Below, piece after piece: positions 34,547 through 61,424 of a stretch of DNA of 61,708 nucleotides. The number at the start of each line of letters is the position of its first letter. The first letter of the stretch is position 1. Under the pieces are notes generated by a model. The model ran no database searches. It saw only the letters and a list, made by a program, of their open reading frames with translations, and had not been told where the DNA came from. The position numbers and the translations under genes are program-made. Source of the DNA: a virus; IMG/VR virus record IMGVR_UViG_3300036854_000037, positions 1 through 61,708 of that record; one strand, given 5' to 3'.

Positions 34547-34626
34547 AGTTAAGGTATCTTACACCCGATGGTGGTCGTGCCTTCATAGTTGTGCTAAGAC
34601 CCAGTGATACCATGCCGACCACCATC
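34545..34626 (-). repeat. 84-base structured element, copy B (upstream of scaffold gene)
   Basis: Perfect 11-bp stem GATGGTGGTCG / CGACCACCATC (34567-34577 with 34616-34626) followed in the - strand RNA by ATACCTTAACTATG, whose ATG starts the scaffold-like gene. It also covers the stop codon of the protease gene. A and B together bracket scaffold, decoration and capsid genes. Confidence 0.78.
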
Positions 34627-35758
34627 ACCCTTCGACAGGCTCATCGATGAGCCGGTTACCCCCGATGCTAAACCCAGTGAACTCGCCAGACCTGAACCGC
34701 TCAAGCATGCGAGGATCGTCTGGCTTCACCCCGATCATAAGTCCTGTTCTCGAACCGCCAAGCCCCATAGCCTTGGAAATATCATCCGTGACAGGCCAAG
34801 CGTAAACTACCTCCCCCACGCGCTTGCCCTTATGCATGACTTTCAAGTCTCGTTTCGACATCATGAAATCCATCGACGCCCTCAACATAGCGTCTTGAGG
34901 GATGTGGTCACCTTGCGAGTCGAAGTACGGATCACCCTTCTCATCGCAGACGATAGCCCACCCGAACACCAGACCTAGTGGGTCGTTGGGGCCTGGGTTG
35001 CCGTGGTTGGGCGTCATCTTAGCGAGCGCTTGGGTGAATGTCATCGCTTTCAACAGACGCTTCTTGGAACCGCGCAGTCGATCTTCAAGGTCGTTGATGT
35101 CAGAACGCGTCCTCTGGCGTGATGCCTCCAGTTGCTTGACGCGCTGATCGTACAACTGGTACTCAGCGTCGAAGCGACGGTAGCGGCGGTCCCAATAATC
35201 TTCTGTACCCGGACCAGATGCCGCACCATAGAGGTAGTACGCATCTTCACGATTGGCAAACGCCTTGTCACGAAGGACCGTTGCTTCGCTGAGCTGAGCG
35301 TCGAAACGATCGTACTGCTCGTACAACGAGTCGAGCCGCTTACGATCCCGTGCATCCATGCCAGAGGTCTGAGGCCGCTCGACCGGCGCCTCCTCCTTCG
35401 GCTTGACTTCCTCAGGCGCTTGCTCGGTTGGCTTCTCTACTGGCTTCTCAGCCTGGGGTTTGGCGCGCGGCTTCCGTAGTTTGGGAGGAGGCGCCTTCTC
35501 CTTCGGCTTCTCCTTGGCCTTGGGTTTTGGTGCCGGCTTGGGTTTCGACTTCGGCTTGGCAGCAGGTTTTGCAGCGGGCTTCTTGCTAGGGGCCTTCGCC
35601 TTCATCTTACCCTTACCACCAGCTGATCCCTTGGGCTTGCCGGCGCCAGCGCCGCGACCTGTAGTCCAACGACCCTTGGAGTCCCGTGTCTGGTTCTCGT
35701 CGAACTCCGGGTAGCCCTTACCCAGGATGGGGCCGACGTTGAAGAGGTCCTCACTCAT
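34625..35758 (-). CDS. XkdF-like head maturation protease, tagged
   Basis: 377 residues from the ATG at 35758. N-terminus MSEDLFNVGPILGKGYPEF begins with the cargo module (residues 14-35). Next is a Lys/Pro/Ala-rich linker of about 80 residues, a coiled-coil region, and a C-terminal domain (VFGWAIVCDEKGDPYFDSQGDHI...VMHKGKRVGEVVYAWPVTDD...TGFSIGG) that matches the XkdF putative serine protease family of prohead proteases. It would process head proteins, possibly those carrying the module. Catalytic residues cannot be assigned by eye. Confidence 0.78.
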   Translation of the reverse strand: MSEDLFNVGPILGKGYPEFDENQTRDSKGRWTTGRGAGAGKPKGSAGGKGKMKAKAPSKKPAAKPAAKPKSKPKPAPKPKAKEKPKEKAPPPKLRKPRAKPQAEKPVEKPTEQAPEEVKPKEEAPVERPQTSGMDARDRKRLDSLYEQYDRFDAQLSEATVLRDKAFANREDAYYLYGAASGPGTEDYWDRRYRRFDAEYQLYDQRVKQLEASRQRTRSDINDLEDRLRGSKKRLLKAMTFTQALAKMTPNHGNPGPNDPLGLVFGWAIVCDEKGDPYFDSQGDHIPQDAMLRASMDFMMSKRDLKVMHKGKRVGEVVYAWPVTDDISKAMGLGGSRTGLMIGVKPDDPRMLERFRSGEFTGFSIGGNRLIDEPVEG

Positions 35759-35759
35759 C

Positions 35760-36599
35760 TCAAAAATGCCCCCGAACCGCAAACAGATCAACCTCAGCCT
35801 TCCCGAGCGAGCGACCAGACGTCCTGCGCATTATGGGAAGGCCAGTCACCATACCTTGGATCCAGTCCCAATTCGCACTCCCCGCTGTTCGCTTCGAATG
35901 CATGGCACTCAGCTTCGCCATAGCCCGCGTCATCTCCGTGCGTTGGGCCTTGAGGTCCCCCAACCTCTTGTAGGAATTGCGGTAGGCTTGCGAATTGCGC
36001 TTGAACTGAGTCATGCGCGCTTGCAGGTTACGAATGTTGCGAGCGACCTTGTCGCGCTCCTTCTTGGTTTTGGTATAAGCGGCGCGGATGGATTTGAGAG
36101 ACGGCTGCTTGGTCTTCTTACCCCGTGCTCGGCCCTCACTTACCCCACCACCCGCGCCGCCACCCCCTGACCAACGACCGTCTGAACCACGAGACTGGTC
36201 TGGATTATATTCAGGGTAGCCCTTCCAAAGTCCTCTATCCATGAGCCGGCGCCGCTTCTTACGCCCGCTCACATGCAACCGACCCTCAATCGAGGTTGAC
36301 TCCGGCGATCCTGGAGAGCCTGGGGCTGCGACCTTTTGCTGCTGAGTGGTCCACGAAGAGTAACTCAGCGAGGCGCCAGCCTTCTTAATCTTCTTGCCGC
36401 GAGCGGACCAGCGTCCGCCGCCCTTGGGGCGCTTGTAGGAGTGGCTTACAGCGCCCCACGCCTGTCTGTGGGCACTCTCGTCGCTGGCGCCGCCACTGAT
36501 GGCTGAGTTGACGACGTTGCGGAAGATGTCTTGGGCGTGACCCGGAAGGGTATGCGTGACAGGCTTAGGTAGTTGATCGTTCCGATCGTAGGGCATCAA
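35760..36599 (-). CDS. ChaB-domain protein with internal cargo module
   Basis: 279 residues. Residues 1-57 (MPYDRNDQLPKPVTHTLPGHAQDIF...HRQAWGAVSHSYK) are a ChaB domain, a small fold common in phage multi-domain cargo proteins. Residues 58-125 are basic and disordered. The module KGYPEYNPDQSRGSDGRW starts at residue 126 and is followed by a lysine-rich coiled coil (YTKTKKERDKVARNIRNLQARM). The build suggests a precursor cut at the module. The gene begins a transcription unit directly after the terminator at 36646-36679. Confidence 0.75.
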   Translation of the reverse strand: MMPYDRNDQLPKPVTHTLPGHAQDIFRNVVNSAISGGASDESAHRQAWGAVSHSYKRPKGGGRWSARGKKIKKAGASLSYSSWTTQQQKVAAPGSPGSPESTSIEGRLHVSGRKKRRRLMDRGLWKGYPEYNPDQSRGSDGRWSGGGGAGGGVSEGRARGKKTKQPSLKSIRAAYTKTKKERDKVARNIRNLQARMTQFKRNSQAYRNSYKRLGDLKAQRTEMTRAMAKLSAMHSKRTAGSANWDWIQGMVTGLPIMRRTSGRSLGKAEVDLFAVRGHF

Positions 36600-36617
36600 A
36601 AACCCCTCGAGTCATAA

Positions 36618-36623
36618 CCCGTG
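36618..36623 (-). promoter_or_regulatory. CACGGG motif after a terminator, candidate promoter element
   Basis: Reads CCCCACGGGTTATGA on the - strand, 19 bases before the ChaB ATG and 23 bases after the terminator T-run, so a promoter must lie close by. Related CACGGG sites precede the tail tube (27928-27933), capsid (32403-32408), decoration (32830-32835), outer membrane protein (37420-37425) and one methyltransferase gene (43499-43504). Confidence 0.35.
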
Positions 36624-36645
36624 GGGTCAATCCTAGTGCAGGCAG

Positions 36646-36679
36646 AAAAAAGGTACAAGTGCGTTCACACCTGTACCTT
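36646..36679 (-). terminator. Rho-independent terminator after the outer membrane protein gene
   Basis: Stem AAGGTACAGGTG / CACTTGTACCTT with one mismatch, six-base loop, then TTTTTT on the - strand. One of the clearest terminators in the window; it isolates the outer membrane protein gene from the ChaB gene. The remaining bases of 36600-36729 hold only the CACGGG motif. Confidence 0.9.
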
Positions 36680-36729
36680 GCAGTTACCGGGCTAAGGAGG
36701 GCCAAGCCCAGGGGAGTCGATCAGTTTGA

Positions 36730-37368
36730 TCAGTTGATCTTGATGTTGATGCGCGCCATCACGGTGCTGCTCGTGACACCGAAGTTGTCGCCGAAGTCTG
36801 TGTACTTGTACTCCGCGCCCCAAGTCACGTGGTTGACCAGAGGCTTCTCGAAGCCAGCGAGGACCGCCCACCCATCGGATGTGGTATCGAACGCTTCGGC
36901 ACGAACCCAAGCTGCCCCGAGGTAGAGCATGAGGTCATCGGGGAAGACCAGACCGGCGCGACCACCCAAGCTGTAGATGTTGTCGATACCACCTGTGCCA
37001 ATCAAGAACTGGGGGCTCCAGGTTCCAAATGCGCCCAACAAGAGCGCGCCGTTGCCGAAGCGATAGTCGTAACCGGCCTTGAGTTCACCAAGGAAGAAGT
37101 CACTGCTGCCGGCGCAGTCATCGCGCACGACTGCAAATGCTGGAAGAGGTCCGTATGGCAGTTCGACAGGGCTCGCTCCACAATTCGTGTTGAGCCAAGT
37201 GTAGCCAACGCCGCCGCCGACATAGAGGCCGGTCCAGTTGAAGGTCGTGTCGGATGCTTGAGGGGGAACAATGGTAGCCGAGCGCGGCCGATAGGTATTG
37301 GGCAGCCCATCCGCGTATACAGCGCTGGCGCACATGAGCGCGATCAGCGCGACGATCCATCTCTTCAT
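36730..37368 (-). CDS. Outer membrane beta-barrel protein, Omp25/31-like
   Basis: 212 residues from the ATG at 37368. Signal peptide MKRWIVALIALMCASAVYA with a clean AxA site. FNWTGLYVGGGVGYTW opens the mature barrel and is the hallmark of the Omp25/Omp31/RopB family of Rhizobiales and relatives; alternating strands follow (FFLGELKAGYDYRFGNGALLLGAF, LMLYLGAAWVRAEAF, VTWGAEYKYTDFG). It would insert in the host outer membrane, perhaps to block superinfection or alter the surface. Its own terminator and upstream hairpin make it look like a separately expressed cassette. Confidence 0.82.
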   Translation of the reverse strand: MKRWIVALIALMCASAVYADGLPNTYRPRSATIVPPQASDTTFNWTGLYVGGGVGYTWLNTNCGASPVELPYGPLPAFAVVRDDCAGSSDFFLGELKAGYDYRFGNGALLLGAFGTWSPQFLIGTGGIDNIYSLGGRAGLVFPDDLMLYLGAAWVRAEAFDTTSDGWAVLAGFEKPLVNHVTWGAEYKYTDFGDNFGVTSSTVMARINIKIN

Positions 37369-37424
37369 GACTTGTCTCGCCTTGAGGGTTCCTACGTAAC
37401 CGACTGTATCATGCACTTACCCGT

Positions 37425-37441
37425 GCGCCTATTGCAGGCGC
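37425..37441 (-). promoter_or_regulatory. Hairpin GCGCCT-GCAAT-AGGCGC before the outer membrane protein gene
   Basis: Perfect 6-bp stem directly after the MazG stop and directly before CACGGG (37425-37420). It may end the MazG transcript or form part of a promoter region. The same sequence pattern occurs before the capsid gene. Confidence 0.45.
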
Positions 37442-37448
37442 GCAACAG

Positions 37449-37850
37449 TCAACGATTGATGCGGCGCCTCCACTCATCGCCCTCGATATGGATGCTGGAC
37501 CCGACCTGGGTGCTCTTCTTGTTGAAGGTGTCGGTCACAGCCATACCAAGGTTGATGCCGGCTTGCCCCGCCAGAATGTCGAGGTAGGTCACGACGTCGG
37601 CGAACTCCTGGATCAGCAAGGGCCTGGCTTCCTCGAGTGTCATGTCGCCACGCCTGATCTTCTTGCAGACGTTGGCTGCTTCGCCCAACTCACCGAGGCA
37701 AGCGGTCATCCAATCGTTCAGAGACCAGTCCGAACCGTCGGGCTTGGAATGTGCCGGCTCGCCCTTGTTGTTCTTGAACTCAGGGAGGCGCGCTGTGTTC
37801 GCCTCACGTAGCGTGTTGAAGCTAAGTCCATTGGTACCGTAGCCCATCAA
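37449..37850 (-). CDS. MazG-like nucleotide pyrophosphohydrolase
   Basis: 133 residues. The all-helical MazG core is clear: GELGEAANVCKKIRRGD (ExxE metal site) and EFADVVTYLDILAGQAG (ExxD). Such phage enzymes hydrolyse dNTPs or alarmones and are found near nucleotide metabolism genes. ATG at 37850 overlaps the upstream gene by four bases. Confidence 0.85.
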   Translation of the reverse strand: MMGYGTNGLSFNTLREANTARLPEFKNNKGEPAHSKPDGSDWSLNDWMTACLGELGEAANVCKKIRRGDMTLEEARPLLIQEFADVVTYLDILAGQAGINLGMAVTDTFNKKSTQVGSSIHIEGDEWRRRINR

Positions 37851-38188
37851 CCCTTCTCCTTCTTCTCCAACTCCTCAATCATTGTCTGGCGGCGTTCGCC
37901 GTGCCAGCCCTCCTTGTCCTCCAAATAGTCAGCAAGCGCCATACCCATACGCTTGGCGTCCTTGATGAAGTCATCGCGTCTGAGTTGCCGACACTTCAGG
38001 ACTTCCACAGCCGAGTCGACCGTCGTAGTACCAAATGTCGAACGTGACAGTGGTGGAATGTTGCCATCGCCGTATTCCATCCACTCCTTGGCAGAGTCGA
38101 TCTCGATGGCGCGGCGGGCGAAGACGTGACCATGGTCGTCCCGGAAGGTCATCTCGAGGAAGAAACGTCGAGTCTGGTATTTGCTCAT
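37847..38188 (-). CDS. Hypothetical 113-residue protein
   Basis: From the ATG at 38188 (MSKYQTRRFFLEMTFRDDHGHVFARRAIEID). Beta-rich first half, charged helical end. Not recognised. Four-base overlaps on both sides place it in a MazG operon. Confidence 0.6.
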   Translation of the reverse strand: MSKYQTRRFFLEMTFRDDHGHVFARRAIEIDSAKEWMEYGDGNIPPLSRSTFGTTTVDSAVEVLKCRQLRRDDFIKDAKRMGMALADYLEDKEGWHGERRQTMIEELEKKEKG

Positions 38189-38361
38189 AATGGTTTGAAC
38201 TTCCTCACTGCATCGATAGGGGAGGAGCAATCCTTCAAGACGCGCCTGGTGCGCCGCTGGCGCTCTTCCTCCTCCAATCGAGCCTGCATTCGTTGCTGCT
38301 CAGCCTTCTGCCGACCGAACCGCGGCGCGGTACCGCTGATACCATGCTTACGACTGCCCAT
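38185..38361 (-). CDS. Hypothetical small charged protein
   Basis: 58 residues from the ATG at 38361 (MGSRKHGISGTAPRFGRQKAEQQ). Stop overlaps the next ATG (ATGA), which supports it. Very helical and Arg/Glu-rich. An ATG at 38382 would add seven residues. No family recognised. Confidence 0.5.
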   Translation of the reverse strand: MGSRKHGISGTAPRFGRQKAEQQRMQARLEEEERQRRTRRVLKDCSSPIDAVRKFKPL

Positions 38362-38416
38362 GCCCCCACGAGCCTGTTGCACCTACCTAGCCCTCCAATT
38401 CTCTGCCTGGGGCATA

Positions 38417-38542: not shown

Positions 38543-38608
38543 GATCCTGCCCTTTCGCTCCGATCCAAACCCATTCAGGCCCGTCCGATCCTGTACCCTT
38601 ACAATACC

Positions 38609-39157
38609 TTAACTATCGCATCCAGGTCCAGCCTTGTAGGCATCCTTGATGTCACCAGAGCGCGCGTAGCCTGTGAACTCCTTCCAGGACTTCCAGCCAT
38701 TGGGGCAATGAAAACCCCACTCTCTGACCCGTGGTCCAATAATGAAGAGGCTCCAAACCGGGCTAGCACCAACTTCCAACCTATGAGCCATCTTACCAGA
38801 CCTGATGACTACACTCCCCTGGGCCCTGACGATGGACTTGGAAGGACCGGCTGGGTTGCTTGGGTCGACCGGAACATGCTCAATATAGTTGCCGACAAGG
38901 AGAATGGAGATGTTCCACCACGGGTGATCATGCAAGGCGCGGTTGTCGTCGCTCTTCTTGATGCGGTGAAGATAGGCCGCGATGCGAAGTCCCAAGCGAT
39001 CCCGATCCTCCTTGTCCTTGACGTGTGGATAGCGAAGCCACCAGCGGTCCATGTAACCTGGACCAATGTCAACATCAGGTACACCCAGGATTGCCGGGAG
39101 TACATAGCGCTTCACCAGATAGCGCCGAACAAGCTCTGGTATCCTCATCTCATCCAT
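38609..39157 (-). CDS. Cupin-like protein
   Basis: 182 residues. NRALHDHPWWNISILLVGNY and MAHRLEVGASPVWSLFIIGPRVREWGFHCPNGW look like a double-stranded beta-helix with a metal-binding HDHxW; phages often carry this HDHPW family with unknown substrate. It adjoins the Mu F-like gene and the glyco-island, so it could act on nucleotide sugars or virion proteins. ATG at 39157 overlaps the upstream stop; ATG at 39148 is an alternative. Confidence 0.65.
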   Translation of the reverse strand: MDEMRIPELVRRYLVKRYVLPAILGVPDVDIGPGYMDRWWLRYPHVKDKEDRDRLGLRIAAYLHRIKKSDDNRALHDHPWWNISILLVGNYIEHVPVDPSNPAGPSKSIVRAQGSVVIRSGKMAHRLEVGASPVWSLFIIGPRVREWGFHCPNGWKSWKEFTGYARSGDIKDAYKAGPGCDS

Positions 39158-40205
39158 TCTCCCCGAGGTAGTCGTCGACCTCTTGTTGTGAACTAAGTAT
39201 TTGATACGCGGTTGTGCAGCGACAATTGATCACTTCTTCGGGTGGTGCACTGGAATCACCAGGATGCATCAATTGCGCGCCGGACTCTGAGTCGAATGGC
39301 TCATCGATCTGACGCGCCTGACCATCAAGACCACGATGGGTGTCGCGTGTGCGAGAATCGTTGGTAGCCGACCATTGCTTGACCACAAACGCCCTGTCGA
39401 TGCCAGCCTGGTCGATGGCGTCGTCCATCGAGTTGGCGCGTACCTGCTCCGTAACCCGCAGCGACTCTGTGCGCGCAATCGTCTCAGCCCTGAGGTCCAG
39501 GAGTCGATCACGATAGCGCTCGACCATGTTGTCGATCGTGTCCTGGTCGATGAAGTCATTCTGATCGATGGCGTTCTCAACCGTGCTATCGAAGCGCCTG
39601 TCGCGTAGCTGACGATTGAGTGCCTGCGTGCTTGTGTTGTCCAAGAGGTTGCGGTAGCTGTCCACCATACCCTGCTGGTGGGGTGTCAACCCAATGACAT
39701 CCGACAGGGCGCGAGCGGTCTCAATTGGGTTCTGCCCTTCCTCTGCAGCGTCCGTGAGTATCTCCAAAACCTGATCCTGCTGCTCAGCTGTCAATCCCTC
39801 AATGTTGTCGAGGAGACTGGCGAACATCTCATCGACGACCTCAGATGGAGGTGGCTTGAAGCCAACGCCCACACTCGCCTTGCTGATACGCCCAGCAATC
39901 GAGTCGAGTTCGTGCGCCCAAATGATGGGTCCCATACCGCGGATGGCCTTCCTGAAATCATTGAAGTGCCCCGCCAGCAACTCGCCCGAGGTCAGCACGT
40001 CGCCACTACACAAAGACCAGGCGTCTTTCCTGATCGAATGCATGCAGTACAGAAAGTGCGACTTGATGTGCTGAGCACACTTCTCGAGTGTGCCCTCAAC
40101 GCGGATCAACTCCTCAGGCGGCGCCCTTCGACCTCTCTTGAGGAGGCGCTTGACCGGCGGTCCTGTGTGGAAGTTCCGAAAGCCATTCGCTCGTAGGAGC
40201 ACCAA
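39150..40205 (-). CDS. Phage Mu gpF-like minor head (head morphogenesis) protein
   Basis: The C-terminal 150 residues carry the family signature: RAETIARTESLRVTEQVRAN, QWSATNDSRTRDTHRGLDGQ, PGDSSAPPEEVINCRC. In Mu and SPP1-like phages this protein binds the portal inside the head. The frame opens with TTG at 40205, but 92 bases of that overlap the next gene; a TTG near 40099 or an ATG near 40043 may be the real start. It is about 21 kb from the presumed portal position, which is atypical. Confidence 0.83.
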   Translation of the reverse strand: MVLLRANGFRNFHTGPPVKRLLKRGRRAPPEELIRVEGTLEKCAQHIKSHFLYCMHSIRKDAWSLCSGDVLTSGELLAGHFNDFRKAIRGMGPIIWAHELDSIAGRISKASVGVGFKPPPSEVVDEMFASLLDNIEGLTAEQQDQVLEILTDAAEEGQNPIETARALSDVIGLTPHQQGMVDSYRNLLDNTSTQALNRQLRDRRFDSTVENAIDQNDFIDQDTIDNMVERYRDRLLDLRAETIARTESLRVTEQVRANSMDDAIDQAGIDRAFVVKQWSATNDSRTRDTHRGLDGQARQIDEPFDSESGAQLMHPGDSSAPPEEVINCRCTTAYQILSSQQEVDDYLGENG

Positions 40206-40958: not shown

Positions 40959-40960
40959 GA

Positions 40961-44318: not shown

Positions 44319-44340
44319 GCCGATTCCCCTCTCCTACGCC

Positions 44341-44370: not shown

Positions 44371-44410
44371 TAGGGGTGGTACCCCAGACACTCCCGATCT
44401 GATCGCCCGC

Positions 44411-46201: not shown

Positions 46202-46202
46202 C

Positions 46203-49771: not shown

Positions 49772-49795
49772 AACTAATCCCCTTCCCTTGTTATA

Positions 49796-52185: not shown

Positions 52186-52386
52186 CTACAGCTGGGCAAT
52201 GGGTGCAGCGTCCAATTTGATCAACGCGCCCGTCACTGCGTCGTAGTACCCATCCTTCTCAGCGCGCATCTTCGCATTAGGCTTGAGCGCCACATGGCTG
52301 CCGTTGGGCAGGATCAGGTCCGCACGCTTCACCCCATCAACCGTGAAGATGCGGATCGAATTCCGGGGGATCGCATTCTTACTCAT
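52186..52386 (-). CDS. Hypothetical 66-residue protein
   Basis: Beta-rich small protein (IRIFTVDGVKRADLILPNGSHVALKP). ATGA overlap with the tandem peptidase gene. No family recognised. Confidence 0.55.
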   Translation of the reverse strand: MSKNAIPRNSIRIFTVDGVKRADLILPNGSHVALKPNAKMRAEKDGYYDAVTGALIKLDAAPIAQL

Positions 52387-53933
52387 CCGAGGCTCCTCAG
52401 CGCATCCACTGACCCACTAAACGTGGTTAGCACCGCTTGCTGCGTCATCGATCTGTTGAAGAGGTACTTGCCGCTCGTCGGCCTGCCGTAGGTTGCTGTG
52501 TAAATCTCAGCGAACAGTTCCTGAGGAATGGATGAAGGCTCATAGGCCTTGGCGTAATAGTCCCGGACAGCCGGAGGTGCGAGTGCGTACTCGTGCAACA
52601 TGACCGGCGCCAACGCATGCGATATGGCAAACTCTTCACCTGGGATCGCGTAGTAGTCAAGTGCATGTGCGCTCTCATGGATAACGATCCGATTGATGTC
52701 ATCAAAAGGTGTGAAGCCAAACCTCTGGTTGCTCCAACCCTGACCCACAACAAGACCCATACCAGGATTGAAGAAGCCTGCGATATACCCACGCTCGGGA
52801 TCAATCTTAGGGTTGAGTGATGCAAACCGGCGCATATCGTAAAGGGCTGTTATCTGCAGGTTCTTCAAGACCTCGTAATGGTTCCGTGGTATCCTAGCCA
52901 TTGTGTCCTTGATCGCCACCATAACCTTCTCAGTACCAGGTTCAGCACGCACCCTGATGTAACGCTGTTCCTGCTCTTGCCTGGGTGGAGATGGTCGAGC
53001 CGTCGCACGCTGTTGACGTTGCTTCTCCCTGTAGCGCTCGCGTCGACGTACAGAGGCCGGGTCCATCCTGAGTTCGCTGATGCCACCAGCACCACCAGAC
53101 CATCGACCATCCTCACCCCGTGATTGATCAGGGTTGTATTCAGGGTAGCCCTTCACGAAGTAGTCGAGGCACTTGGATGTCGGCATTGTACCAGACGTCC
53201 AGTTCCTGATGGCTGAGACTGTCCTGGGGAAGCGGCGCAAGACGCCCTGTTGCGTCAGGCTGTAACCAATGAAGTCCCGCTCTCTTCCTCCCTGCGGTCC
53301 GTACATCGCTGCGTACACATCGGCGAACAGCTCCTTGGGGAGGCTGTCGGCTGAATAGTGCTCTGAGTAGTAGCGCTGCGAACGCGACAAACCATTGTAC
53401 TCAGACATGATGGTGCCAGCAAGCGCGCTCGAGAAGGCGAAGGGTTTACCAGGGATGGCGTTGTAGTCAAATGCATGCCCGAACTCATGCGTTGCCCAAC
53501 GCTCAACATTCTCAAACTCGATGAAGCCCCACTTGTTGTTGGTCCAACCTTCACCCACAACGAGTCCCAGGATTGGACTGTAGAAGCCGGCTGTGAACGT
53601 CAGGTCCTTGCGGTTGGGATCGATTTCAAGCATTCCCATCCTGGAATACTTCGCCATGTCATAGACGGCCTTTTTCGGTAGGTTCCGAAGGACAGCCTGG
53701 TGATCCTCAGGTAGCCGTGACATGACGTTCTTGATTGCCCGGCCGGCGTTGTCGGCTCCCCTCTCCTGGAGAAGCCTGATCGATGTATCTTGCTTGGACC
53801 AGTCAATGCCGCGCCGCTTGACCCTGTACGTCTTAGGGCGCTGGCGAGCCGAACCTCCTCCAGACCAACGTCCATCCTCACCCCGTGGTTGATCCGGATG
53901 GTATTCAGGATAGCCTTTGAATAGGTTGAGCAT
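52383..53933 (-). CDS. Tandem metallopeptidase protein with two cargo modules
   Basis: 516 residues made of two repeats, each a cargo module plus peptidase. Module 1 at residues 6-27, peptidase 1 with ATHEFGHAFDY (149) and ELFADVYAAMYG (201); module 2 at 261-282, peptidase 2 with VIHESAHALDYYAIPG (419) and ELFAEIYTATYG (471). HExxH plus a downstream Glu fits gluzincin-type zinc peptidases related to lethal-factor/Pro-Pro endopeptidase folds. Both copies keep the catalytic residues but have diverged widely. Probable injected or head-internal proteases; target unknown. Confidence 0.8.
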   Translation of the reverse strand: MLNLFKGYPEYHPDQPRGEDGRWSGGGSARQRPKTYRVKRRGIDWSKQDTSIRLLQERGADNAGRAIKNVMSRLPEDHQAVLRNLPKKAVYDMAKYSRMGMLEIDPNRKDLTFTAGFYSPILGLVVGEGWTNNKWGFIEFENVERWATHEFGHAFDYNAIPGKPFAFSSALAGTIMSEYNGLSRSQRYYSEHYSADSLPKELFADVYAAMYGPQGGRERDFIGYSLTQQGVLRRFPRTVSAIRNWTSGTMPTSKCLDYFVKGYPEYNPDQSRGEDGRWSGGAGGISELRMDPASVRRRERYREKQRQQRATARPSPPRQEQEQRYIRVRAEPGTEKVMVAIKDTMARIPRNHYEVLKNLQITALYDMRRFASLNPKIDPERGYIAGFFNPGMGLVVGQGWSNQRFGFTPFDDINRIVIHESAHALDYYAIPGEEFAISHALAPVMLHEYALAPPAVRDYYAKAYEPSSIPQELFAEIYTATYGRPTSGKYLFNRSMTQQAVLTTFSGSVDALRSLG

Positions 53934-53936
53934 TGG

Positions 53937-54512
53937 TTAAATGCCCTCATCAAACCCAAGGTCGTCCTGGGTGACAGAGATGCCATCCGTACCACTGGTG
54001 ATGAACTGCTCAAAGTCACCCTGACCACACAGAAACTGCCCAACGAGTTCCTGCACAGGCAACGGGAATCGATTGAGCTGTGCCGCAGTGCCCTCAGCGA
54101 GGCGGAACCACTCGATGTTGACCGAGCCTGCACCCAACCGTCTGATCTTCTGAACGCCTGGGACGTTGTTGTTGACCGCCTCGTTGCCATCGGTGAGCGC
54201 GAACGCCATCTCAACGGAGCCATCAATGATCTGCTGAGGAATGGTTTGATCATCCAAACCATCGATGCCGGTATTGGTTCGCGGCCACTGCAACGTCTGA
54301 CCGCTCAGCATAGTCGGCTCACCAAGCCAACACTGACGATCGAAGAGACGCGTCGCCGTGACGAGGGCAGAACCCTTCTGATCATCTGTCAGGTTGAACC
54401 AACCAGACGCCAGGAAGTTCGCCTGCAGGTAGAGATTTGCGTAGTCGAGCGTTGAGTAGGCATCATACGGCTGCGAGTTTACGATGACGACACTCTCATT
54501 AGCGTCGGTCAT
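53937..54512 (-). CDS. Head-tail connector, DnaT-like-domain family
   Basis: 191 residues. YSTLDYANLYLQANFLASGWFNLT..., LVTATRLFDRQCWLGE, LQWPRTNTGID and IPQQIIDGSVEMAFAL give the pattern of the helical connector family often labelled DnaT-like. In other phages it follows the capsid gene; here it sits among cargo genes about 21 kb away. No cargo module. Confidence 0.75.
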   Translation of the reverse strand: MTDANESVVIVNSQPYDAYSTLDYANLYLQANFLASGWFNLTDDQKGSALVTATRLFDRQCWLGEPTMLSGQTLQWPRTNTGIDGLDDQTIPQQIIDGSVEMAFALTDGNEAVNNNVPGVQKIRRLGAGSVNIEWFRLAEGTAAQLNRFPLPVQELVGQFLCGQGDFEQFITSGTDGISVTQDDLGFDEGI

Positions 54513-55114
54513 GGCATATGCCTCCAGATAAACCTCAGCGTGTCCAAAACCGGGTTGACGATATCAAAACCGTCACTGGGTACAGGAGCACGACCTCCAA
54601 AATAGAAGTAGGCAGCGAGTCCCACAAGGACAGCTGTGCCAACGACGTTGATGAAGATCGACTCCTGGGTGGCTGGGTCCAATGAGCCGAACCATTCCCT
54701 TACCGATGTCCGCACCTTCTGCAGGACACCAGCCGACGCCTGCTTCAATTCAGGCGCGCTGGGGGTGCCACCATCGGAGAGCATCGAGGCGACAGGCCTG
54801 ACAAGATCGAGTCCAGCCGTCTTCCCAGAACCAGAGGAGCTTGTCCACTTACCAGACCTATCCCGTGCCTCCTCAGATCTGTATTCTGGATAACCCTTCG
54901 TCACTGAGCGCAGCAACGACACAGATGCGCGCGCCATGTTGAGAACGGCATCAACGTAGTCGGCGGCCTGCCCCGTGAGCTTGATACGTTCCTTCTGCAG
55001 TCTGTTGATCAACGAGTCCAGACGCATGGGATTGCGCTCAGTGCGAGACAACCGCATGAGCGAGACCATCTCACGCAATACCTCATCGAGAACCAAAGGC
55101 GCTTGTGCTACCAT
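54509..55114 (-). CDS. Membrane protein with internal cargo module
   Basis: 201 residues. Helical N-terminal domain (1-70), module variant KGYPEYRSEEARDRSGKW at 73-90, then after a linker a single membrane helix FINVVGTAVLVGLAAYFYFG near residue 165-184. If the module is cut, a small single-pass peptide would be released. Overlaps the neighbouring genes by 4-7 bases. Confidence 0.65.
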   Translation of the reverse strand: MVAQAPLVLDEVLREMVSLMRLSRTERNPMRLDSLINRLQKERIKLTGQAADYVDAVLNMARASVSLLRSVTKGYPEYRSEEARDRSGKWTSSSGSGKTAGLDLVRPVASMLSDGGTPSAPELKQASAGVLQKVRTSVREWFGSLDPATQESIFINVVGTAVLVGLAAYFYFGGRAPVPSDGFDIVNPVLDTLRFIWRHMP

Positions 55115-55590
55115 GGCCTACTCAACCCCGCAGTCAAAACGCGCTGTGCATCGAGTGCCCATCCGTTAACCTCACGCTTCATTGAGTCAATGGCTGCCTT
55201 GCGACTCTTGACCTTCCTAGCGTTTATAACCTGAACGGCAGCATAGGCAGCATCTGGCGGTTCCTTCGCAAGAGTGTCGATCAAATCATAGGCTTTCTGC
55301 CTGATCGGAGCCATGTCAGCCCGCAACCTGCGGCCAGCCTCCTGTGAGCGGGATGGACCAAATCGTTCGGCGCGCTGACGCGCTTGGTTGATCTGCGAGC
55401 GCAATTTATTGAGCTTGGAACCTACTCCTTTGCCACGGGCTACCGCTGCCTTGTTGCCCACAGGTTTGGTCTTACCACGCGCTCGACCCTCACCGGCCCA
55501 ACGTCCATCATCACCCCTAACCTCGTCGGGGTCGTACTCTGGATAACCCTTGCCTAGGATCGGGCGCATCTTAAATAGGTCTTGAGTCAT
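55108..55590 (-). CDS. Helical protein with N-terminal cargo module
   Basis: 160 residues. MTQDLFKMRPILGKGYPEYD at the N-terminus matches the start of the head protease (MSEDLFNVGPILGKGYPEFD) in 14 of 20 positions, so the two leaders share ancestry. The rest is basic and coiled-coil (KLNKLRSQINQARQRAERF). Function unknown; resembles internal head proteins in composition. Confidence 0.62.
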   Translation of the reverse strand: MTQDLFKMRPILGKGYPEYDPDEVRGDDGRWAGEGRARGKTKPVGNKAAVARGKGVGSKLNKLRSQINQARQRAERFGPSRSQEAGRRLRADMAPIRQKAYDLIDTLAKEPPDAAYAAVQVINARKVKSRKAAIDSMKREVNGWALDAQRVLTAGLSRPW

Positions 55591-58271
55591 TCCAAGAACC
55601 TCTCACCCAAACGAGCAAACTTCTCCTGAGGCAACCTGTACCTAGCCGTGGTTCCAAGGAGTAGAAACTTGCCAAGGGTCAGTCTGCTACCAGACTTGCG
55701 AACCCTGTCATGTGTGAAACGAAGCGGGAGCGCTGAGTTAGGTAGCTCTTGGTTAAGATGGGCAAGGCGGAAAGCCAAGTCAGGACCACCAGACTTGAGG
55801 ATCACATCGCGCACATAGTCAACAGTCTCCTTGTCAAGGGAACCCTCACCATGTGCCGCGAGCAAACGTGTGTCCACCTCATAAGCAAGTTTCCGCACCT
55901 CGTTCTCATCGGCAAGCTCGAAACCAAGTCGCGGCCAGACGTATCCACCACAGACACCACCACTACAAAACGGATTTGCACCCGACTCGAAAGCTATCTT
56001 ACGAACCTCCTCCATGATAGACGACACCCAGCCCTTGGCAGTGCGAGTTCCACCTGAGAGGATGAGCTTGGACGTTTCACCATTGTTGTCGTACAGCTTC
56101 CACTGGTACATCCGGTCCTTGACGGTATCGAAGGCCAGCTCATTGACACCCTTGCCGAGGATGTAGGTTGGTACATAACGACCAAACGAGTTGCTCATTG
56201 CGCGACCGATGGCGCGGGTCGCTGCGATCTCAGGTGTCGTCTGAACGAATAGACCAGAAACCCGATAGCCGGCTTCCTCGAACGCATCCATCAAATCGGT
56301 AGAGGCATCAGGCGATCTCAACGTCGCGTCATGGATGATATTGAGCCCCAGCTCGCGACCTCTGTCCTCGAGTTCCGATGCGAGTTCAGATGCCTCCTCA
56401 TGGTAGAGCGATGAGTTCCACCCGTGATACCCAGGCAAACCATAGTCTGCGTCACCCGCCTTGAACTGCTTGTTGTCGCCGCGCAGATCATCGGCATTGA
56501 CATAGAGATACTTATCCATGTCAGGCACAAAACCCGACTCCATGAGTGATGTGGTCTTACCCGACCCAGGGCGACCTCCCATGATGATCAGTTGCGGGTC
56601 TTCGCCTTCCGCTGGCTTGGCGCGCTCCAACGCGTCCTCAAGGCGTAACTCGATAATACGCTCATGCAGTGCCTGACGATCGGCTGTCCACGTACCGTCA
56701 GGGTTCTTGAAGCCCCCTTCCGAGACGAGCGCATCTGTGTGAGGCAGCTTGGAGAGGCGCTTGTTGGTATCGCGAATGTAGGCGCGCTGTTTGGGTGTGA
56801 GGCTCCTCATGAATGCGCGCTGGGATGGCGTTGGCTTCTCCCTCAGATGTGACCCGAGGAGATCGCGCGCCTCGTGCCCAGGCCGCAACTCGCCACCCTC
56901 ACCACCAAGCCATCGACCGTCAGGACCGCGCGTCTGGCTTGGATTGTACTCTGGATAACCCTTGGTCAATCCATATCCAACAACTGTGAAGCGGTAAGTG
57001 TCACGATCCTCCTTGAACCAACCACCAAAGCCAGCGCGTACCCTACCTGTTCCATCGAAGCGCAATCGCAAGCCGCGAGGGAGGATGAGTTCGTCCTCCT
57101 TATAACCAGGTGTAAACATAATACGGTCTACAGCACGCCAGAATGCCTTACCAGGGCCGATAGGTGTTCCCTGAGGAACTGCAATTTCCATGAGTTGCCC
57201 AAACCCACTTGCATGCGCGACATCCGGTGTAGCTGATGTATAACCAGCATTAACCAAAAGATCACCCTCCTTAAGTCCGCCTAGAATATCACGACCAATT
57301 CTAAGATCGTCTCCCACTAGAGAATTAAAGCCGCGGTACACAATACCATCCCGCTTGGTCTTGTGTGCTGCTATAAAGGCATCAAGTGCCACCACGACTT
57401 CATCGCCTGTTTGACCCAAAGACTCACCATTGCGCAATCGTCGGTTGAGGGTCATCGAATACATGGTACCTAAGTAGTTATCCCGAATGGTATTATATTG
57501 CTGCTTTGTCCATGAACCTATTTTCTCCGCATCGTCCTGATGCAATAAGTTGGTGGGGCGGCCAGCGCCCCCCACCCAACGACCATGTTCATCCCGTGAC
57601 TGATCAGGGTTGTACTCTGGGTAGCCCTTGTTGACCTTGGGTGACAGGACGAAGTCGTAGTGGTAAGAGTTACGGAAAAGTTGCACCTTACCAACAAACT
57701 TCAACTCCGTGTCGCGGGGGAGGAGGATCTCAGCCTCATCCGACCGGTCGTCAAGGAACAGAGCACCTACGTGGACACCAGGTAAGAGAGTGATACGCAT
57801 GCTATTATCGCCGAAGGTGCTGATCACATCGGCATGAACAGACGTTGACATGAAGCCTTTGTCAACCACAGAGTCCCCAGGCGTCAGGCTGTCAAACATC
57901 TCCAACCGTTTAATATTGGTACCCGCTGCCCTGTAGACCACAACCGGCTCAGTTATAATGTAGGACTTGGTATACACATCGAGGTTTGCGACGTGTTCCT
58001 CGATTTTCTCCCTGTTCAGGGGAGAGGCAGGGACGCGGATACCTCTCAAGTAACTATTGACTATCATGTACCCAGACGTACCATAATTCTTGACCGATGC
58101 TCTAATAGCCTCGGAAGGACGCTGCAGCTCCTGGATCGCACCACCAAGTGTCAGATGGAAAGTATCAGGCGCATCCTCACGAGCCCAACGACCATCAGGT
58201 GCGCGCCACTCATCGGGATTGAATTCCGGGTAGCCCTTGAGGACCAGGAGCACCACTACTTCCTCACTCAA
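55587..58271 (-). CDS. Three-module cargo polyprotein: ADP-ribosyltransferase, ADP-ribosyltransferase, zeta-toxin-like kinase
   Basis: 894 residues in three units, each headed by the cargo module (residues 12-33, 215-236, 437-458). Unit 1 has the R-S-E triad of ADP-ribosyltransferases: VYRA (R114), FMSTS (140-144) and DEAEILLPR (ExE 179-181). Unit 2 repeats it: VYRG (R313), GYTSA (343-347), KEDELILPR (392-394). Unit 3 has a P-loop kinase, GGRPGSGKTT (565-574), VNADDLRG (591-598) and TRAIGRAMSNSFGRYVP, the pattern of zeta/PezT toxins, then a C-terminal helical domain. All catalytic residues appear intact. Likely injected effectors acting on host proteins and cell-wall precursors; that role is inferred. 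Confidence 0.85.
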   Translation of the reverse strand: MSEEVVVLLVLKGYPEFNPDEWRAPDGRWAREDAPDTFHLTLGGAIQELQRPSEAIRASVKNYGTSGYMIVNSYLRGIRVPASPLNREKIEEHVANLDVYTKSYIITEPVVVYRAAGTNIKRLEMFDSLTPGDSVVDKGFMSTSVHADVISTFGDNSMRITLLPGVHVGALFLDDRSDEAEILLPRDTELKFVGKVQLFRNSYHYDFVLSPKVNKGYPEYNPDQSRDEHGRWVGGAGRPTNLLHQDDAEKIGSWTKQQYNTIRDNYLGTMYSMTLNRRLRNGESLGQTGDEVVVALDAFIAAHKTKRDGIVYRGFNSLVGDDLRIGRDILGGLKEGDLLVNAGYTSATPDVAHASGFGQLMEIAVPQGTPIGPGKAFWRAVDRIMFTPGYKEDELILPRGLRLRFDGTGRVRAGFGGWFKEDRDTYRFTVVGYGLTKGYPEYNPSQTRGPDGRWLGGEGGELRPGHEARDLLGSHLREKPTPSQRAFMRSLTPKQRAYIRDTNKRLSKLPHTDALVSEGGFKNPDGTWTADRQALHERIIELRLEDALERAKPAEGEDPQLIIMGGRPGSGKTTSLMESGFVPDMDKYLYVNADDLRGDNKQFKAGDADYGLPGYHGWNSSLYHEEASELASELEDRGRELGLNIIHDATLRSPDASTDLMDAFEEAGYRVSGLFVQTTPEIAATRAIGRAMSNSFGRYVPTYILGKGVNELAFDTVKDRMYQWKLYDNNGETSKLILSGGTRTAKGWVSSIMEEVRKIAFESGANPFCSGGVCGGYVWPRLGFELADENEVRKLAYEVDTRLLAAHGEGSLDKETVDYVRDVILKSGGPDLAFRLAHLNQELPNSALPLRFTHDRVRKSGSRLTLGKFLLLGTTARYRLPQEKFARLGERFLE

Positions 58272-58291
58272 AGTAGCCGTTGATCATAACG

Positions 58292-58618
58292 TCACCACGC
58301 CAAACCAGGTCCTGTGTATCCGTCGAAGGAGAATGAAGCGCCAGGCTTAAGAACGTGACCAGTGGTGCTGGTCACACCTGAAGTTGATCCTAGATAGACC
58401 TTGATGGATGCATCGTCGTTGGTAAGCTCGCCGAAAACCCTACCAGGGTTGCTCGCAACGACCAACTCAGCCGACGTGGAGAGAACATTCTGACCAACAG
58501 ATAGAGTGTTGCTAACCAGGTCGTCAGCCGGGCGCGTCTTCAGATTGCCGTCAGAATCTAGGTTTACAGCGACCGGGTTTTTGTTTGCCCTGTCATAGCC
58601 AAAAGTCAACCGCGTCAT
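58292..58618 (-). CDS. Small virion-type beta protein
   Basis: 108 residues. LTFGYDRANKNPVAVNLDSDGNL and VYLGSTSGVTSTTGHVLKPGASFSF resemble small capsid-associated proteins found in many siphophages. GGGGGAGGAG precedes the ATG. No cargo module. Confidence 0.6.
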   Translation of the reverse strand: MTRLTFGYDRANKNPVAVNLDSDGNLKTRPADDLVSNTLSVGQNVLSTSAELVVASNPGRVFGELTNDDASIKVYLGSTSGVTSTTGHVLKPGASFSFDGYTGPGLAW

Positions 58619-58640
58619 GGTCTCCTCCCCCTAGCAGGGG

Positions 58641-58817
58641 CTACCCATCCTTAGGTTCAGTCTCACTTGCCTTCTTGGTAGCACGGATGATCTGCAGGCC
58701 CACCCCATCCTCAACGAAGCGGGATCGGCGGGTCATGTCATTGCGAGGGAGGCGCACGCGATCCTTCTTCTGCATCGCGTCGAATGCTTCCTTGAACGTC
58801 TTGTGCAACTTGGGCAT
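58641..58817 (-). CDS. Hypothetical 58-residue basic protein
   Basis: MPKLHKTFKEAFDAMQKKDR...IIRATKKASETEPKDG. Starts one base after the ATP-grasp gene stop, which supports coupled translation. Lys/Arg-rich; no family recognised. Confidence 0.5.
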   Translation of the reverse strand: MPKLHKTFKEAFDAMQKKDRVRLPRNDMTRRSRFVEDGVGLQIIRATKKASETEPKDG

Positions 58818-58818
58818 C

Positions 58819-60081
58819 TCAGAACTCTATCCCGAACTCTGCCAACTTCTTGATCTCTGCCTGGGCCTCATCCAGCGCGTCGGGGTAGAGCTGAACGAGG
58901 TAGCCTTCAACCTTCTCAGCGATCTGCTTGACCTGTTTGACCACCTCATCCTGCGACTCGGCATAGGCAACGATGGCGCCGATCTCAGGCATGCCGGCCG
59001 GATCAGGGACAACATAGTACTTCCCGTCGACGACCGCCAGGTTGCGCAGCTTGACGTTCTCGCGCAGATCATCGGGGAACTCGATGGCTTGCCAGTTGCG
59101 CTCACCAGCCCAGGCAGAATGGATCAGCAGTTCAGCCGCCCACGTACCCTTGTAGGATGGTTCGACCAGCACACCATCAGCCCCTTCCCAGAGCACCTCT
59201 GCAATGTTCTCCATCATGAGACCGAACAACTCCGAGGGAGGTGAGCCGAAGCGCGCACAAGGATCGATGCTGTAGGCCGTTCCATCCTTGGGAATACGAA
59301 GTTCTGCCGACCAGAAATTACGATACTTGTACGCCTTCAAGACAGGTGCGAACCGGGCGTTGACATCACGCACCTGTTTGGGCAGACCAGCATAGGGCTT
59401 CACGCGCCCGACATACCCCTTGTCCTTGACCTCGATGCCATAAAGCGTCTGCTTGGGGAATTGACCATCGATGCAGTAGCCATCGTAGCCAACCTCGACC
59501 GCATCGTTGATTGCATCCTCGACGATGAACTCGATCTTGTTGCGCTTGGCGCCAAGCTTGTGACCCAGCTCGTCAAGGCGCGGTTCGATCAGCTTGTAGT
59601 TCTTGGAGTAGAACGTCTCCATATCACCACGCGTCGCGCTCACCTTGATGTACTGATCGTCGTTCTTCTTGAGGTAGGCGCGCAACGCATCGAGCCCTGT
59701 GACAACCTTGTAGGGGCCGATGGTGATACCAAGGTCCTTCTGCAGGTCCTTGCTGACAGACCTGTCCAATTCCAGGTCTTCCCCTCTCCGTGATCCCCAA
59801 ACCCGCTTGCCCATCTCAACGAGATGGGTCTGGAGGGCACCATCGTAGACATCAGGGAAGACGAACAGGTCGACGTAGGGGGCGACATCCCAGATGTTGG
59901 TGACGCGCTCGACCCCGTCGATGCCCTTGCCGATCCACAGCGGATTGCTGTTCGGATAGCTGCTTATCCAGGGGCAGTAGTAGTAGACCAGATCGAAGTC
60001 ATTGGCGAGGACGCTCGCTATCTCAACGAAGAGCCCGTTATCATAAACGAGCGCCTTCTTCCCTGGATACAACTTTGCCAT
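58819..60081 (-). CDS. ATP-grasp-like ligase
   Basis: 420 residues. The central region LGITIGPYKVVTGLDALRAYL, IKVSATRGDMETFY, KIEFIVEDAINDAVEVGYDGYCIDG and a later TAYSIDPCARFGSPPSELFG follow the ATP-grasp fold with a carboxylate-amine ligase layout reminiscent of PurD or carbamoyl-phosphate synthase. It could ligate an amino acid or amine to a virion protein or a metabolite. Placed among cargo genes; no module. Fold call moderate, reaction unknown. Confidence 0.68.
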   Translation of the reverse strand: MAKLYPGKKALVYDNGLFVEIASVLANDFDLVYYYCPWISSYPNSNPLWIGKGIDGVERVTNIWDVAPYVDLFVFPDVYDGALQTHLVEMGKRVWGSRRGEDLELDRSVSKDLQKDLGITIGPYKVVTGLDALRAYLKKNDDQYIKVSATRGDMETFYSKNYKLIEPRLDELGHKLGAKRNKIEFIVEDAINDAVEVGYDGYCIDGQFPKQTLYGIEVKDKGYVGRVKPYAGLPKQVRDVNARFAPVLKAYKYRNFWSAELRIPKDGTAYSIDPCARFGSPPSELFGLMMENIAEVLWEGADGVLVEPSYKGTWAAELLIHSAWAGERNWQAIEFPDDLRENVKLRNLAVVDGKYYVVPDPAGMPEIGAIVAYAESQDEVVKQVKQIAEKVEGYLVQLYPDALDEAQAEIKKLAEFGIEF

Positions 60082-60096
60082 CGCAGCCCCATCGGT

Positions 60097-60822
60097 TTAG
60101 TCCATGCCTGTATTCCAACCAGGCCGCACACCTGCATACCGTCCCCCTGTCGCTGCCTTGCGATAGACCCAACGAGCCATCAGGTAAAGAGCGGTTGCTG
60201 TCACAGCAGCACCATAAACTGTCATGACCACACCACCTGTGGCAAGGCCACCCAAGCCTGCGATGAGAAGTGCGTGGGTGCTGGTCAGCTCCTGCAATAC
60301 ATGGTCGGCAAACGAGGGCTCGTACCAAACCTTGCCGTCATAGCTGCGCATGGTGTCCCAGGTCTTCTGCGCCTCGCGCGACATACGATCGGATGCCGCC
60401 TGCCGCTCAGCCTCCGACTTGGATGTCAGCCCATCAACGTCGCGCTTGATACGATCGAGGCCACCCTTGACCCCATCGTACTTGGCCCCCATGGATTTCG
60501 ACCACTCAGGCCGGCGATTGCGCTCACTGGAACTAGATTCCATTGAGTCCATCCAGTCGAGCTTGGCTCGCAACCAATCAGCATTCACACGAGAGGGTGG
60601 CTTACGACCGAACTTGCGCTCGTACTCAGAAGCGAGTTTTGCACGCTCTCCAGGCTTGGCACGACCTTCGCTGATACCACCAACAGAACCACCAGACCAA
60701 CGTCCATCCTCACCCCGTGACTGGTCAGGGTTGTATTCAGGGTAGCCCTTGCTTAAGACTGTCAGCAACCCATCGATGCGAGCGTCGAGGTCCGCCACAT
60801 CCTTCCACAGAGTCTGTCTCAT
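60097..60822 (-). CDS. Membrane protein with N-terminal cargo module
   Basis: 241 residues from the ATG at 60822 (ATGA overlap). Short leader [20 protein letters not shown], module KGYPEYNPDQSRGEDGRW at residues 25-42, a helical domain, then one or two membrane helices (LLIAGLGGLATGGVVMTVYGAAVTATALYLMARWV) near the C-terminus. Could insert in a host membrane after injection. The longer frame to 60936 runs through the upstream gene. Confidence 0.68.
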   Translation of the reverse strand: MRQTLWKDVADLDARIDGLLTVLSKGYPEYNPDQSRGEDGRWSGGSVGGISEGRAKPGERAKLASEYERKFGRKPPSRVNADWLRAKLDWMDSMESSSSERNRRPEWSKSMGAKYDGVKGGLDRIKRDVDGLTSKSEAERQAASDRMSREAQKTWDTMRSYDGKVWYEPSFADHVLQELTSTHALLIAGLGGLATGGVVMTVYGAAVTATALYLMARWVYRKAATGGRYAGVRPGWNTGMD

Positions 60823-61424
60823 GGCACCAAAACCTTGAGCGCGCCACCAATCGCCCGACCCAACGAGTCGACCGCCATCGGGATGGCCACTGATGCAACA
60901 GCGATGACGATAGCCGACAGGAACAGCGCAAACCATACCTTCTGCATGGTCTCCACTGTGTCACGAGATGGCAAGCCGATCCTCGCGTTGGCGACATCCA
61001 CAGATCGCATGACAGCGTCGCGGGAGTCAGCGGGCACACCTTGCTTGATCAGATGCTCCCTGATGGCAGCAGCGATCTGACGGCGTTGGGGTCCGATCTT
61101 GCGCTTGCCCTCGAGTGTTATCTCGCGAGGGGCTGAGGCGCCACCAGAGGTCCACTCACCCGACTGTGTGCGCGCCTCATCGGGATTGAATTCCGGGTAG
61201 CCCTTCTTCGTTTCTGTGGCCACCCGCTTGATCATGGGCATCAAGGCCGCCACAACGGCCTCTGCAGCGTTCTTGCGATGCTCCGTAGGGAGTGCCCGTA
61301 TGGCGCGAGCAACGCCCTGAGCGGCCCGCGCTGACGCAGCAATCGCCGTTCTGATGTCAGCGTCGGGGCTGCGCACCTTGTAAACGGGTGCACCGGACAG
61401 CACAACGACGCTCAAGCCGGTCAT
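60819..61424 (-). CDS. Membrane protein with internal cargo module
   Basis: 201 residues. N-terminal helical domain ([17 protein letters not shown]), module variant [18 protein letters not shown] at 74-91, [17 protein letters not shown] region, then membrane segments [21 protein letters not shown] near the end. Layout parallels the proteins at 54509 and 60097. Coupled at both ends by ATGA overlaps. Confidence 0.66.

What the first reader, a model, noticed from the sequence alone, without database searches (positions are those of the whole stretch)
34625..61424. A recurrent 22-residue module marks at least eight phage proteins, including the head protease and toxin-like enzymes
KGYPEYNPDQSRGEDGRW-type modules occur 11 times in eight genes of otherwise unrelated fold: protease, ChaB protein, tandem peptidases, ADP-ribosyltransferases, zeta-like kinase and membrane proteins. 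Short NP..PR..GRW/GKW motifs are known near the start of head-associated proteins in other phages, and the polyvalent-protein concept describes phage multi-domain proteins injected with DNA. The new element here is the sheer number of copies and their placement at every domain border. I infer a capsid-loading signal and/or cleavage site used by the XkdF-like protease, comparable in logic to capsid-targeting sequences of T4 internal proteins.
Basis: partly seen in the sequence, partly recalled or inferred. Interest (0 to 1): 0.92.

Follow-up and report, generated by a model that had tools for sequence, protein, structure and literature searches.

The report
Shared leader tag on phage effectors
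A short, strongly conserved peptide tag sits in front of each effector domain in this phage and in many unrelated phages, often joining the effector to a protein of the phage head, so it is probably a loading (and perhaps release) tag for proteins that phages carry in their heads and inject into bacteria.

Summary
In detail: 11 copies of K-G-Y-P-E-[YF]-x5-R-x3-G-x-W in eight genes, none in 60 codon-shuffled controls, conserved as protein rather than DNA. It is not peculiar to this phage. It joins portal, MuF or protease proteins to effector domains: ADP-ribosyltransferases, zeta kinases, nucleases, topoisomerase IB and others. It is polar: 113 of 114 copies are followed by at least 97 residues, while 44 of 96 first copies lie within 60 residues of the N-terminus. 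Copies cluster in one region per phage. The same domain can be a stand-alone tagged gene, part of a fusion, or a portal tail. I read it as a leader that loads effectors into the prohead, T4-CTS-like in logic but not shown to be a T4 CTS. Cleavage by the head protease is possible but unsupported. The tag also occurs on chromosomal toxin-like and membrane proteins in bacteria without a detectable portal, so it is not capsid-exclusive. The literal motif strings searched appear in no paper of the library.

The parts
35654..35719 (-). module copy 1 (KGYPEFDENQTRDSKGRWTTGR), residue 14 of the XkdF-like protease
36159..36224 (-). module copy 2 (KGYPEYNPDQSRGSDGRWSGGG), after the ChaB domain
53088..53153 (-). 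module copy 3 (KGYPEYNPDQSRGEDGRWSGGA), between the two peptidase domains
53853..53918 (-). module copy 4 (KGYPEYHPDQPRGEDGRWSGGG), residue 6 of the tandem peptidase protein
54833..54898 (-). module copy 5 (KGYPEYRSEEARDRSGKWTSSS), before a hydrophobic, membrane-like segment
55486..55551 (-). module copy 6 (KGYPEYDPDEVRGDDGRWAGEG), residue 14 of a small protein whose N-terminus resembles the protease's
56898..56963 (-). module copy 7 (KGYPEYNPSQTRGPDGRWLGGE), before the zeta kinase domain
57564..57629 (-). module copy 8 (KGYPEYNPDQSRDEHGRWVGGA), before the second ART domain
58173..58238 (-). module copy 9 ([22 protein letters not shown]), before the first ART domain
60685..60750 (-). module copy 10 (KGYPEYNPDQSRGEDGRWSGGS)
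61140..61205 (-). module copy 11 ([22 protein letters not shown])
34625..35758 (-). module-bearing XkdF-like prohead protease (PF14550) with Lys/Pro-rich linker and coiled coil
   Evidence: E 1e-6; (helices 136-179, 185-247)
35760..36599 (-). ChaB domain, module, coiled-coil tail
   Evidence: PF06150, E 6e-13
52383..53933 (-). two module + metallopeptidase (HExxH) units, 41% identical to each other
54509..55114 (-). module-bearing protein with hydrophobic C-terminal segment
55108..55590 (-). small module-bearing protein
55587..58271 (-). module-ART-module-ART-module-zeta protein ending in a piece homologous to a portal-borne domain of L020
60097..60936 (-). module-bearing protein with C-terminal hydrophobic segments
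60819..61424 (-). module-bearing protein with C-terminal hydrophobic segment
31339..32394 (-). major capsid protein (no module), context
   Evidence: phrog_1005, E 6e-78
39150..40205 (-). head-morphogenesis homologue of R6L gp95 and RDJL Phi 1 gp70 (no module), context
53937..54512 (-). head-tail adaptor Ad1 lying among the module genes, context
   Evidence: phrog_477, E 8e-23

Best explanation
The module is the local, GYPE-extended form of a short leader found in many unrelated phages. It precedes effector domains that are carried with, or fused to, head proteins. Most likely it is a recognition tag bound by a component of the prohead interior (portal, scaffold or protease), which draws the tagged protein into the head before DNA is packaged, so that it is injected with the genome. 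Shown: the element, its polarity, its clustering, its presence on portal, MuF and protease-type proteins, and reshuffling of tagged domains between genes of related phages. Inferred: location inside the virion, binding to a head component, and injection. Whether the tag is later cut, freeing effectors from the portal or from each other, is open; such a cut would explain repeated copies and portal fusions, but gene fusion of already tagged genes explains the repeats without it.
For: Tagged ORFs in viral contigs match portal, minor head/MuF and head-morphogenesis PHROGs plus ART, zeta and other enzyme Pfams. Architectures with coordinates (motif positions): portal 41-396, motif 485, ART 516-682 (L042); portal, motif 525, PBECR3 551-663 (L088); Mu portal, motif 502, InPase 605-730 (L030); motif 416, topoisomerase IB 441-678 (L091); portal, MuF, motif 1066 (L096). 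Where a portal domain was detected the motif lies C-terminal to it, the end that lies on the lumen side in known portals (established knowledge). Polarity: 113/114 copies followed by >=97 residues; copies within an ORF are 110-545 residues apart. Clustering: median span 4% of the record in 17 long records. Window module+zeta equals a stand-alone tagged gene in L020 (38% identity), and the window's C-terminal piece equals a portal tail in L020 (34%). Positions not fixed by the DNA pattern are conserved: T/S at +1 and G at +3 to +5. T4 IPs and the Alt ART are drawn into the prohead by a short N-terminal propeptide (PMC7411985).
Against: No virion proteomics. The element also occurs in bacteria with no detected HK97-type portal (G038, G039, G041-G043), four of which also gave no Terminase_6N match, and on a Pseudonocardiales membrane-protein family, so a capsid partner cannot be universal. 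A single tag per protein should suffice for loading, yet up to four copies occur. Related phages R6L and RDJL Phi 1 showed no recognisable copy in the regions scanned, so it is accessory.
Confidence: 0.55

Rival explanations
1. The module is mainly a processing site: the prohead protease cuts at or beside it, releasing effectors from the portal and from polyproteins.
For: Copies sit between domains, up to four in one 1305-aa protein (L050). An effector fused to the dodecameric portal could not easily be injected unless freed (inference). In 24 motif-bearing records of 38 kb or more, Pfam matches were found for S78 in 7 (5 over cut-off), S78_2 in 4 (3 over) and DUF2213 in 10 (9 over), and none for Clp; DUF2213 as a protease is my reading, not established here.
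Against: The invariant R, G and W with P-x-x-P-R and D-x-x-G look like a binding epitope rather than a protease subsite pattern. No baseline of untagged phages was measured. The window's capsid protein lacks the module, and in L087 (motif 112, S78 528-653, capsid 910-1090) the motif was not found at the protease/capsid junction. Many copies lie within 20 residues of the N-terminus, where a cut would free nothing but the tag. Tagged proteins occur in bacteria without detected head genes.
Confidence: 0.17
2. The module is a flexible recombination-friendly linker: a shared short sequence that lets effector cassettes be swapped, with no specific binding partner.
For: Cassettes clearly move between genes of related phages; the downstream stretch is Gly-rich; AlphaFold gives low confidence over the module in the protease.
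Against: DNA of the copies is diverged while protein is held (46% identity at four-fold sites), so homologous recombination at the module is not the selected trait. Invariant R, G and W across unrelated phages are not needed for a linker. Nearly half of first copies lie near the N-terminus, joining nothing.
Confidence: 0.12
3. The element is a general leader of secreted or delivered effectors, older than its phage use, recognised by a partner that is not a capsid component (for example an export or translocation machine, or a host factor).
For: In bacterial genomes it precedes HNH-like and nuclease-like toxin-type domains with small downstream genes that look like immunity genes, peptidoglycan-hydrolase-type domains, and a membrane-protein family in Pseudonocardiales; some of these genomes have no detected portal.
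Against: In viral contigs it is tied to the head-gene region. Some bacterial cases are themselves phage- or GTA-like: in L204/L302 a tagged protein lies next to a terminase with a portal carrying a variant tag downstream, and L300 is a portal with a variant tag and extension. No common export machine was looked for.
Confidence: 0.12

Closest known systems
T4 capsid targeting sequence (CTS) of IPI-III and Alt
   Same: Short leader in front of proteins made with the head genes, one class of which (Alt) is an ADP-ribosyltransferase; proposed to draw them into the prohead (PMC7411985).
   Different: The T4 CTS is a terminal propeptide of about 10-20 residues removed by gp21; this module is often internal and repeated and has a rigid R-x3-G-x-W core; no sequence comparison with the T4 CTS was made.
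Polyvalent proteins and MuF/portal/protease effector fusions (Iyer et al. 2017, PMC5512222; Iyer et al. 2022, PMC9503650)
   Same: Same domain repertoire (ARTs, 2H, PBECR, metallopeptidases) and same fusion partners (MuF, portal, head protease).
   Different: Passages read in those papers describe domains and fusions; I found no mention of a shared short leader at the junctions. Full text and supplements were not read end to end.
MuF polymorphic toxins (Jamet et al. 2017, PMC5576092)
   Same: Phage-borne toxins with a head-type N-terminal domain and variable C-terminal toxin.
   Different: That family is defined by the MuF domain; the words 'motif' and 'linker' do not occur in the paper's main text. 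Here the common part is a 13-22-residue tag independent of MuF.
SPN3US/T4-type prohead protease propeptides
   Same: Head proteins carry leaders thought to target them to the prohead (PMC7411985).
   Different: Cleaved after a T4 gp21-like motif in SPN3US; nothing comparable was shown here.

Membership tests
T4-type capsid targeting sequence | Located at the protein's N-terminus | tested here: not met
   Only 44 of 96 first copies lie within 60 residues of the start, and second to fourth copies are internal; in the window about half are internal.
T4-type capsid targeting sequence | Removed by the prohead protease | not testable with these tools
   Needs virion mass spectrometry.
T4-type capsid targeting sequence | Sufficient to bring a passenger protein into heads | not testable with these tools
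   Needs a packaging assay.
Polyvalent proteins | Several distinct effector domains in one polypeptide of a phage or plasmid | tested here: met
   Window 55587-58271: two ART stretches and a zeta domain; L021 protein: ART homology to the window plus an HExxH peptidase.
Polyvalent proteins | Encoded with head genes | tested here: met
   Adaptor Ad1 lies among module genes; adjacent to the portal in L020, L021, L050 and L054.
Polyvalent proteins | Injected into the host | not testable with these tools
   Inference only.
Prohead-protease cleavage site | Present at the cut between capsid prodomain and mature capsid protein | tested here: not met
   Not in the window's capsid protein; not found at the protease/capsid junction of L087. 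Capsid processing in these phages is itself unproven.
XkdF-type protease (PF14550) | Match to the family above its curated cut-off | tested here: met
   29.2 bits against a cut-off of 24.

The most novel reading that the evidence does not exclude
A common 13-residue sorting tag, shared by phages with unrelated portal families and possibly by GTA-like elements, marks effectors for carriage inside capsids; chromosomal toxin-immunity genes of Alphaproteobacteria carry the same tag in order to ride in prophage or GTA particles.
Probability: 0.2. Interest if true: 0.95.

Novelty: new variant of a known kind. Interest (0 to 1): 0.82.

Why it matters
Which proteins enter phage heads, and by what signal, is known in detail only for a few phages such as T4. 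A recognisable tag would let virion-carried effectors (ARTs, nucleases, anti-defence proteins) be predicted from sequence, would explain how unrelated effectors are swapped onto portal, MuF and protease proteins, and could serve for loading proteins into phage particles. The chromosomal tagged toxins raise the testable question of whether bacteria use phage-like particles to deliver them.

Tried and rejected
A tblastn search with the full window module found nothing in 50,697 phage isolates; a consensus form gave 14 weak hits (E about 1), all on mycobacteriophage/Nocardia proteins labelled head maturation protease, whose sequences are basic and not evidently proteases, so I do not use them as evidence for a protease link. 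The window's ART-ART-zeta protein has no relative in phage isolates at E 1e-5. PDB searches gave no useful match. Protease-family counts were meant to separate cleavage from loading but lack a baseline of untagged phages. AlphaFold of the ART-ART-zeta protein was poor (mean pLDDT 42); the single-sequence protease model (58.5) shows at best a weak hairpin at R-D-x-x-G-R-W and is not used as evidence. No viral homologue of the whole protease was found. An upstream amphipathic helix was considered: position-specific composition showed no clear periodicity. PHROG 595 'head maturation protease' matches are discounted: in the window protein the match covers the ART region. Literature searches for the motif strings and for tag-like descriptions found nothing.

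Full report
THE OBSERVATION. The window is an IMG/VR-type virus record of 61,708 bases. None appears in 60 codon-shuffled windows, and identity at four-fold degenerate sites between copies is 46%, so the conservation is at protein level. Pfam confirms the XkdF-like protease, ChaB, ART and zeta domains. The 52383-53933 protein is a duplicated module + HExxH peptidase unit (41% identity). The nearest isolate by capsid protein is Erythrobacter phage R6L (50.6%). No part of the window was similar to the L021 portal or terminase, so these genes may lie off the end of the record.

SAME MODULE IN OTHER VIRUSES. DNA patterns for the module found it in a few other viral contigs. One (L021) has nine copies in seven ORFs, including an ART-module-module-peptidase protein beside the portal. 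Another (L020) has it on a zeta kinase, on a 192-aa protein and inside the C-terminal extension of the portal itself. The window's module+zeta region aligns with the stand-alone tagged zeta gene of L020 (38% over 397 residues), and the C-terminal piece of the window protein aligns with the tail of the L020 portal (34%). The same tagged domain is therefore a separate gene, part of a fusion, or a portal tail in different phages.

THE WIDER ELEMENT. Residues not fixed by the pattern are also conserved: F or Y before it, D after R, T or S after W, and G at +3 to +5. The window module is an extended form of this element. Of 75 ORFs, many match portal, minor head/MuF and head-morphogenesis PHROGs, and Pfam finds ADP-ribosyltransferases (10), portal families, MuF (7), zeta (3), topoisomerase IB (3), kinase-like domains, Acb1 (2), PBECR3 and others. 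Coordinates for 20 proteins show the order head protein, motif, effector: L042 (portal, motif, ART), L088 (portal, motif, PBECR3), L030 (Mu portal, motif, InPase). There are also variants: L097 has portal, Acb1, then motif; L066 has an Acb1/2H domain, MuF, then motif; L036 has the motif before MuF.

POLARITY AND CLUSTERING. In viral sequences, 113 of 114 copies are followed by at least 97 residues (one by 25), while 44 of 96 first copies lie within 60 residues of the start; copies in one ORF are 110-545 residues apart. In 17 records with at least two copies, the copies span a median of 4% of the record; a simple uniform-placement test combines to p 6e-17, overstated because copies within one ORF are not independent. 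One record (G024) is an exception because of a weak distant match.

OUTSIDE PHAGES. The same pattern in bacterial genomes gave 56 ORFs. Some are prophage-type portals and MuF proteins. Others are solitary genes: HNH-like and nuclease-like toxin-type proteins with a small downstream gene (L199, L162; toxin and immunity roles are inferred from sequence by eye), peptidoglycan-hydrolase-type proteins, and an orthologous Pseudonocardiales family with a hydrophobic segment. In 5 of 16 such genomes no HK97-type portal was found, and four of those five also gave no Terminase_6N match; some are draft or MAG assemblies. In L204/L302 a tagged protein lies next to a terminase, and a portal with a variant tag (FNPGQIRKPPGQPGGGRWT) lies downstream; in L300 a portal carries YSPDQPRVPAGNPDGGQWT.

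MECHANISM. The simplest reading is a leader that marks effectors for the prohead. The T4 precedent is direct: internal proteins and the Alt ART carry short CTS propeptides that bind the prohead core and are cut by gp21 (PMC7411985). Polyvalent-protein work had already inferred that effectors fused to MuF, portal and head protease are packaged and injected (PMC5512222, PMC9503650). What is new here is the shared short element at these junctions; the literal strings I tried do not occur in the library, and further searches found no description. Cleavage remains possible but has no positive evidence: the element is absent from the window's capsid protein and was not found at the protease/capsid junction of L087, and its invariant R, G and W suggest a bound epitope. 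Protease counts across records are compatible with both readings.

LIMITS. Both scans were capped, so counts are minimum values and composition may depend on scan order. PHROG and Pfam names are annotations. Virion location, binding partner, cleavage and injection are all inferred. Novelty rests on an open-access library, not on all literature.

Noticed in passing
window 32325 (-) and 36290 (-); L021 3107: I-E-G-x-L-H-V occurs near the N-terminus of the window's major capsid protein and upstream of the module in the ChaB proteins of the window and L021. It may be a second shared signal or a processing site; not found in the R6L and RDJL Phi 1 regions scanned.
   Followed up: partly
window 32852-34546 and 34625-35791: The protease domain appears split over two genes: the first ends at GFSIGG..., the next starts MRKFNPYHDGGGKFQP and carries FKIDELSMVDRPAQ, with a weak S78 match. 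R6L has a protease-like gene followed by a second gene in the same order.
   Followed up: partly
window 55590-55950; L020 portal C-terminus: Shared C-terminal piece (GGYVWPxxGFEL...) that by eye resembles the second half of a GNAT domain; in L020 it is the tail of the portal.
   Followed up: partly
window 35758, 55590; L020 6747; L021 13051, 15479: Several module proteins share an N-terminal [ST]xDLF...(PILG)KGYPE start, so for N-terminal copies the leader may be about 30 residues long.
   Followed up: no
L162, L194, L172, L174, L211, L152, L199: Chromosomal tagged toxin-type genes in Alphaproteobacteria, in at least two cases with a small downstream gene that could be an immunity gene.
   Followed up: partly
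L204/L302/L270 (Hyphomicrobiaceae MAG): A phage- or GTA-like element with a tagged protein next to the terminase, deaminase-like and other small genes, and a portal with a variant tag.
   Followed up: partly
L159, L170, L210, L213, L223: Pseudonocardiales family with the tag at the N-terminus followed by a hydrophobic segment; no portal was found in three of the four genomes tested. Function unknown.
   Followed up: partly
L066, L097: Anti-CBASS Acb1-type domains in tagged head proteins (MuF and portal fusions), which suggests an anti-defence enzyme carried in the virion.
   Followed up: no
L050 5941-9858: 1305-aa protein with four tag copies, ART-like segments and a neighbouring tagged zeta-like protein, directly after the portal.
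   Followed up: no
L144 3495-4256, L146 3504-4277, L145 3492-4202: Mycobacteriophage and Nocardia phage proteins annotated as capsid maturation proteases begin with the tag but are short basic proteins; the annotation looks doubtful.
   Followed up: partly
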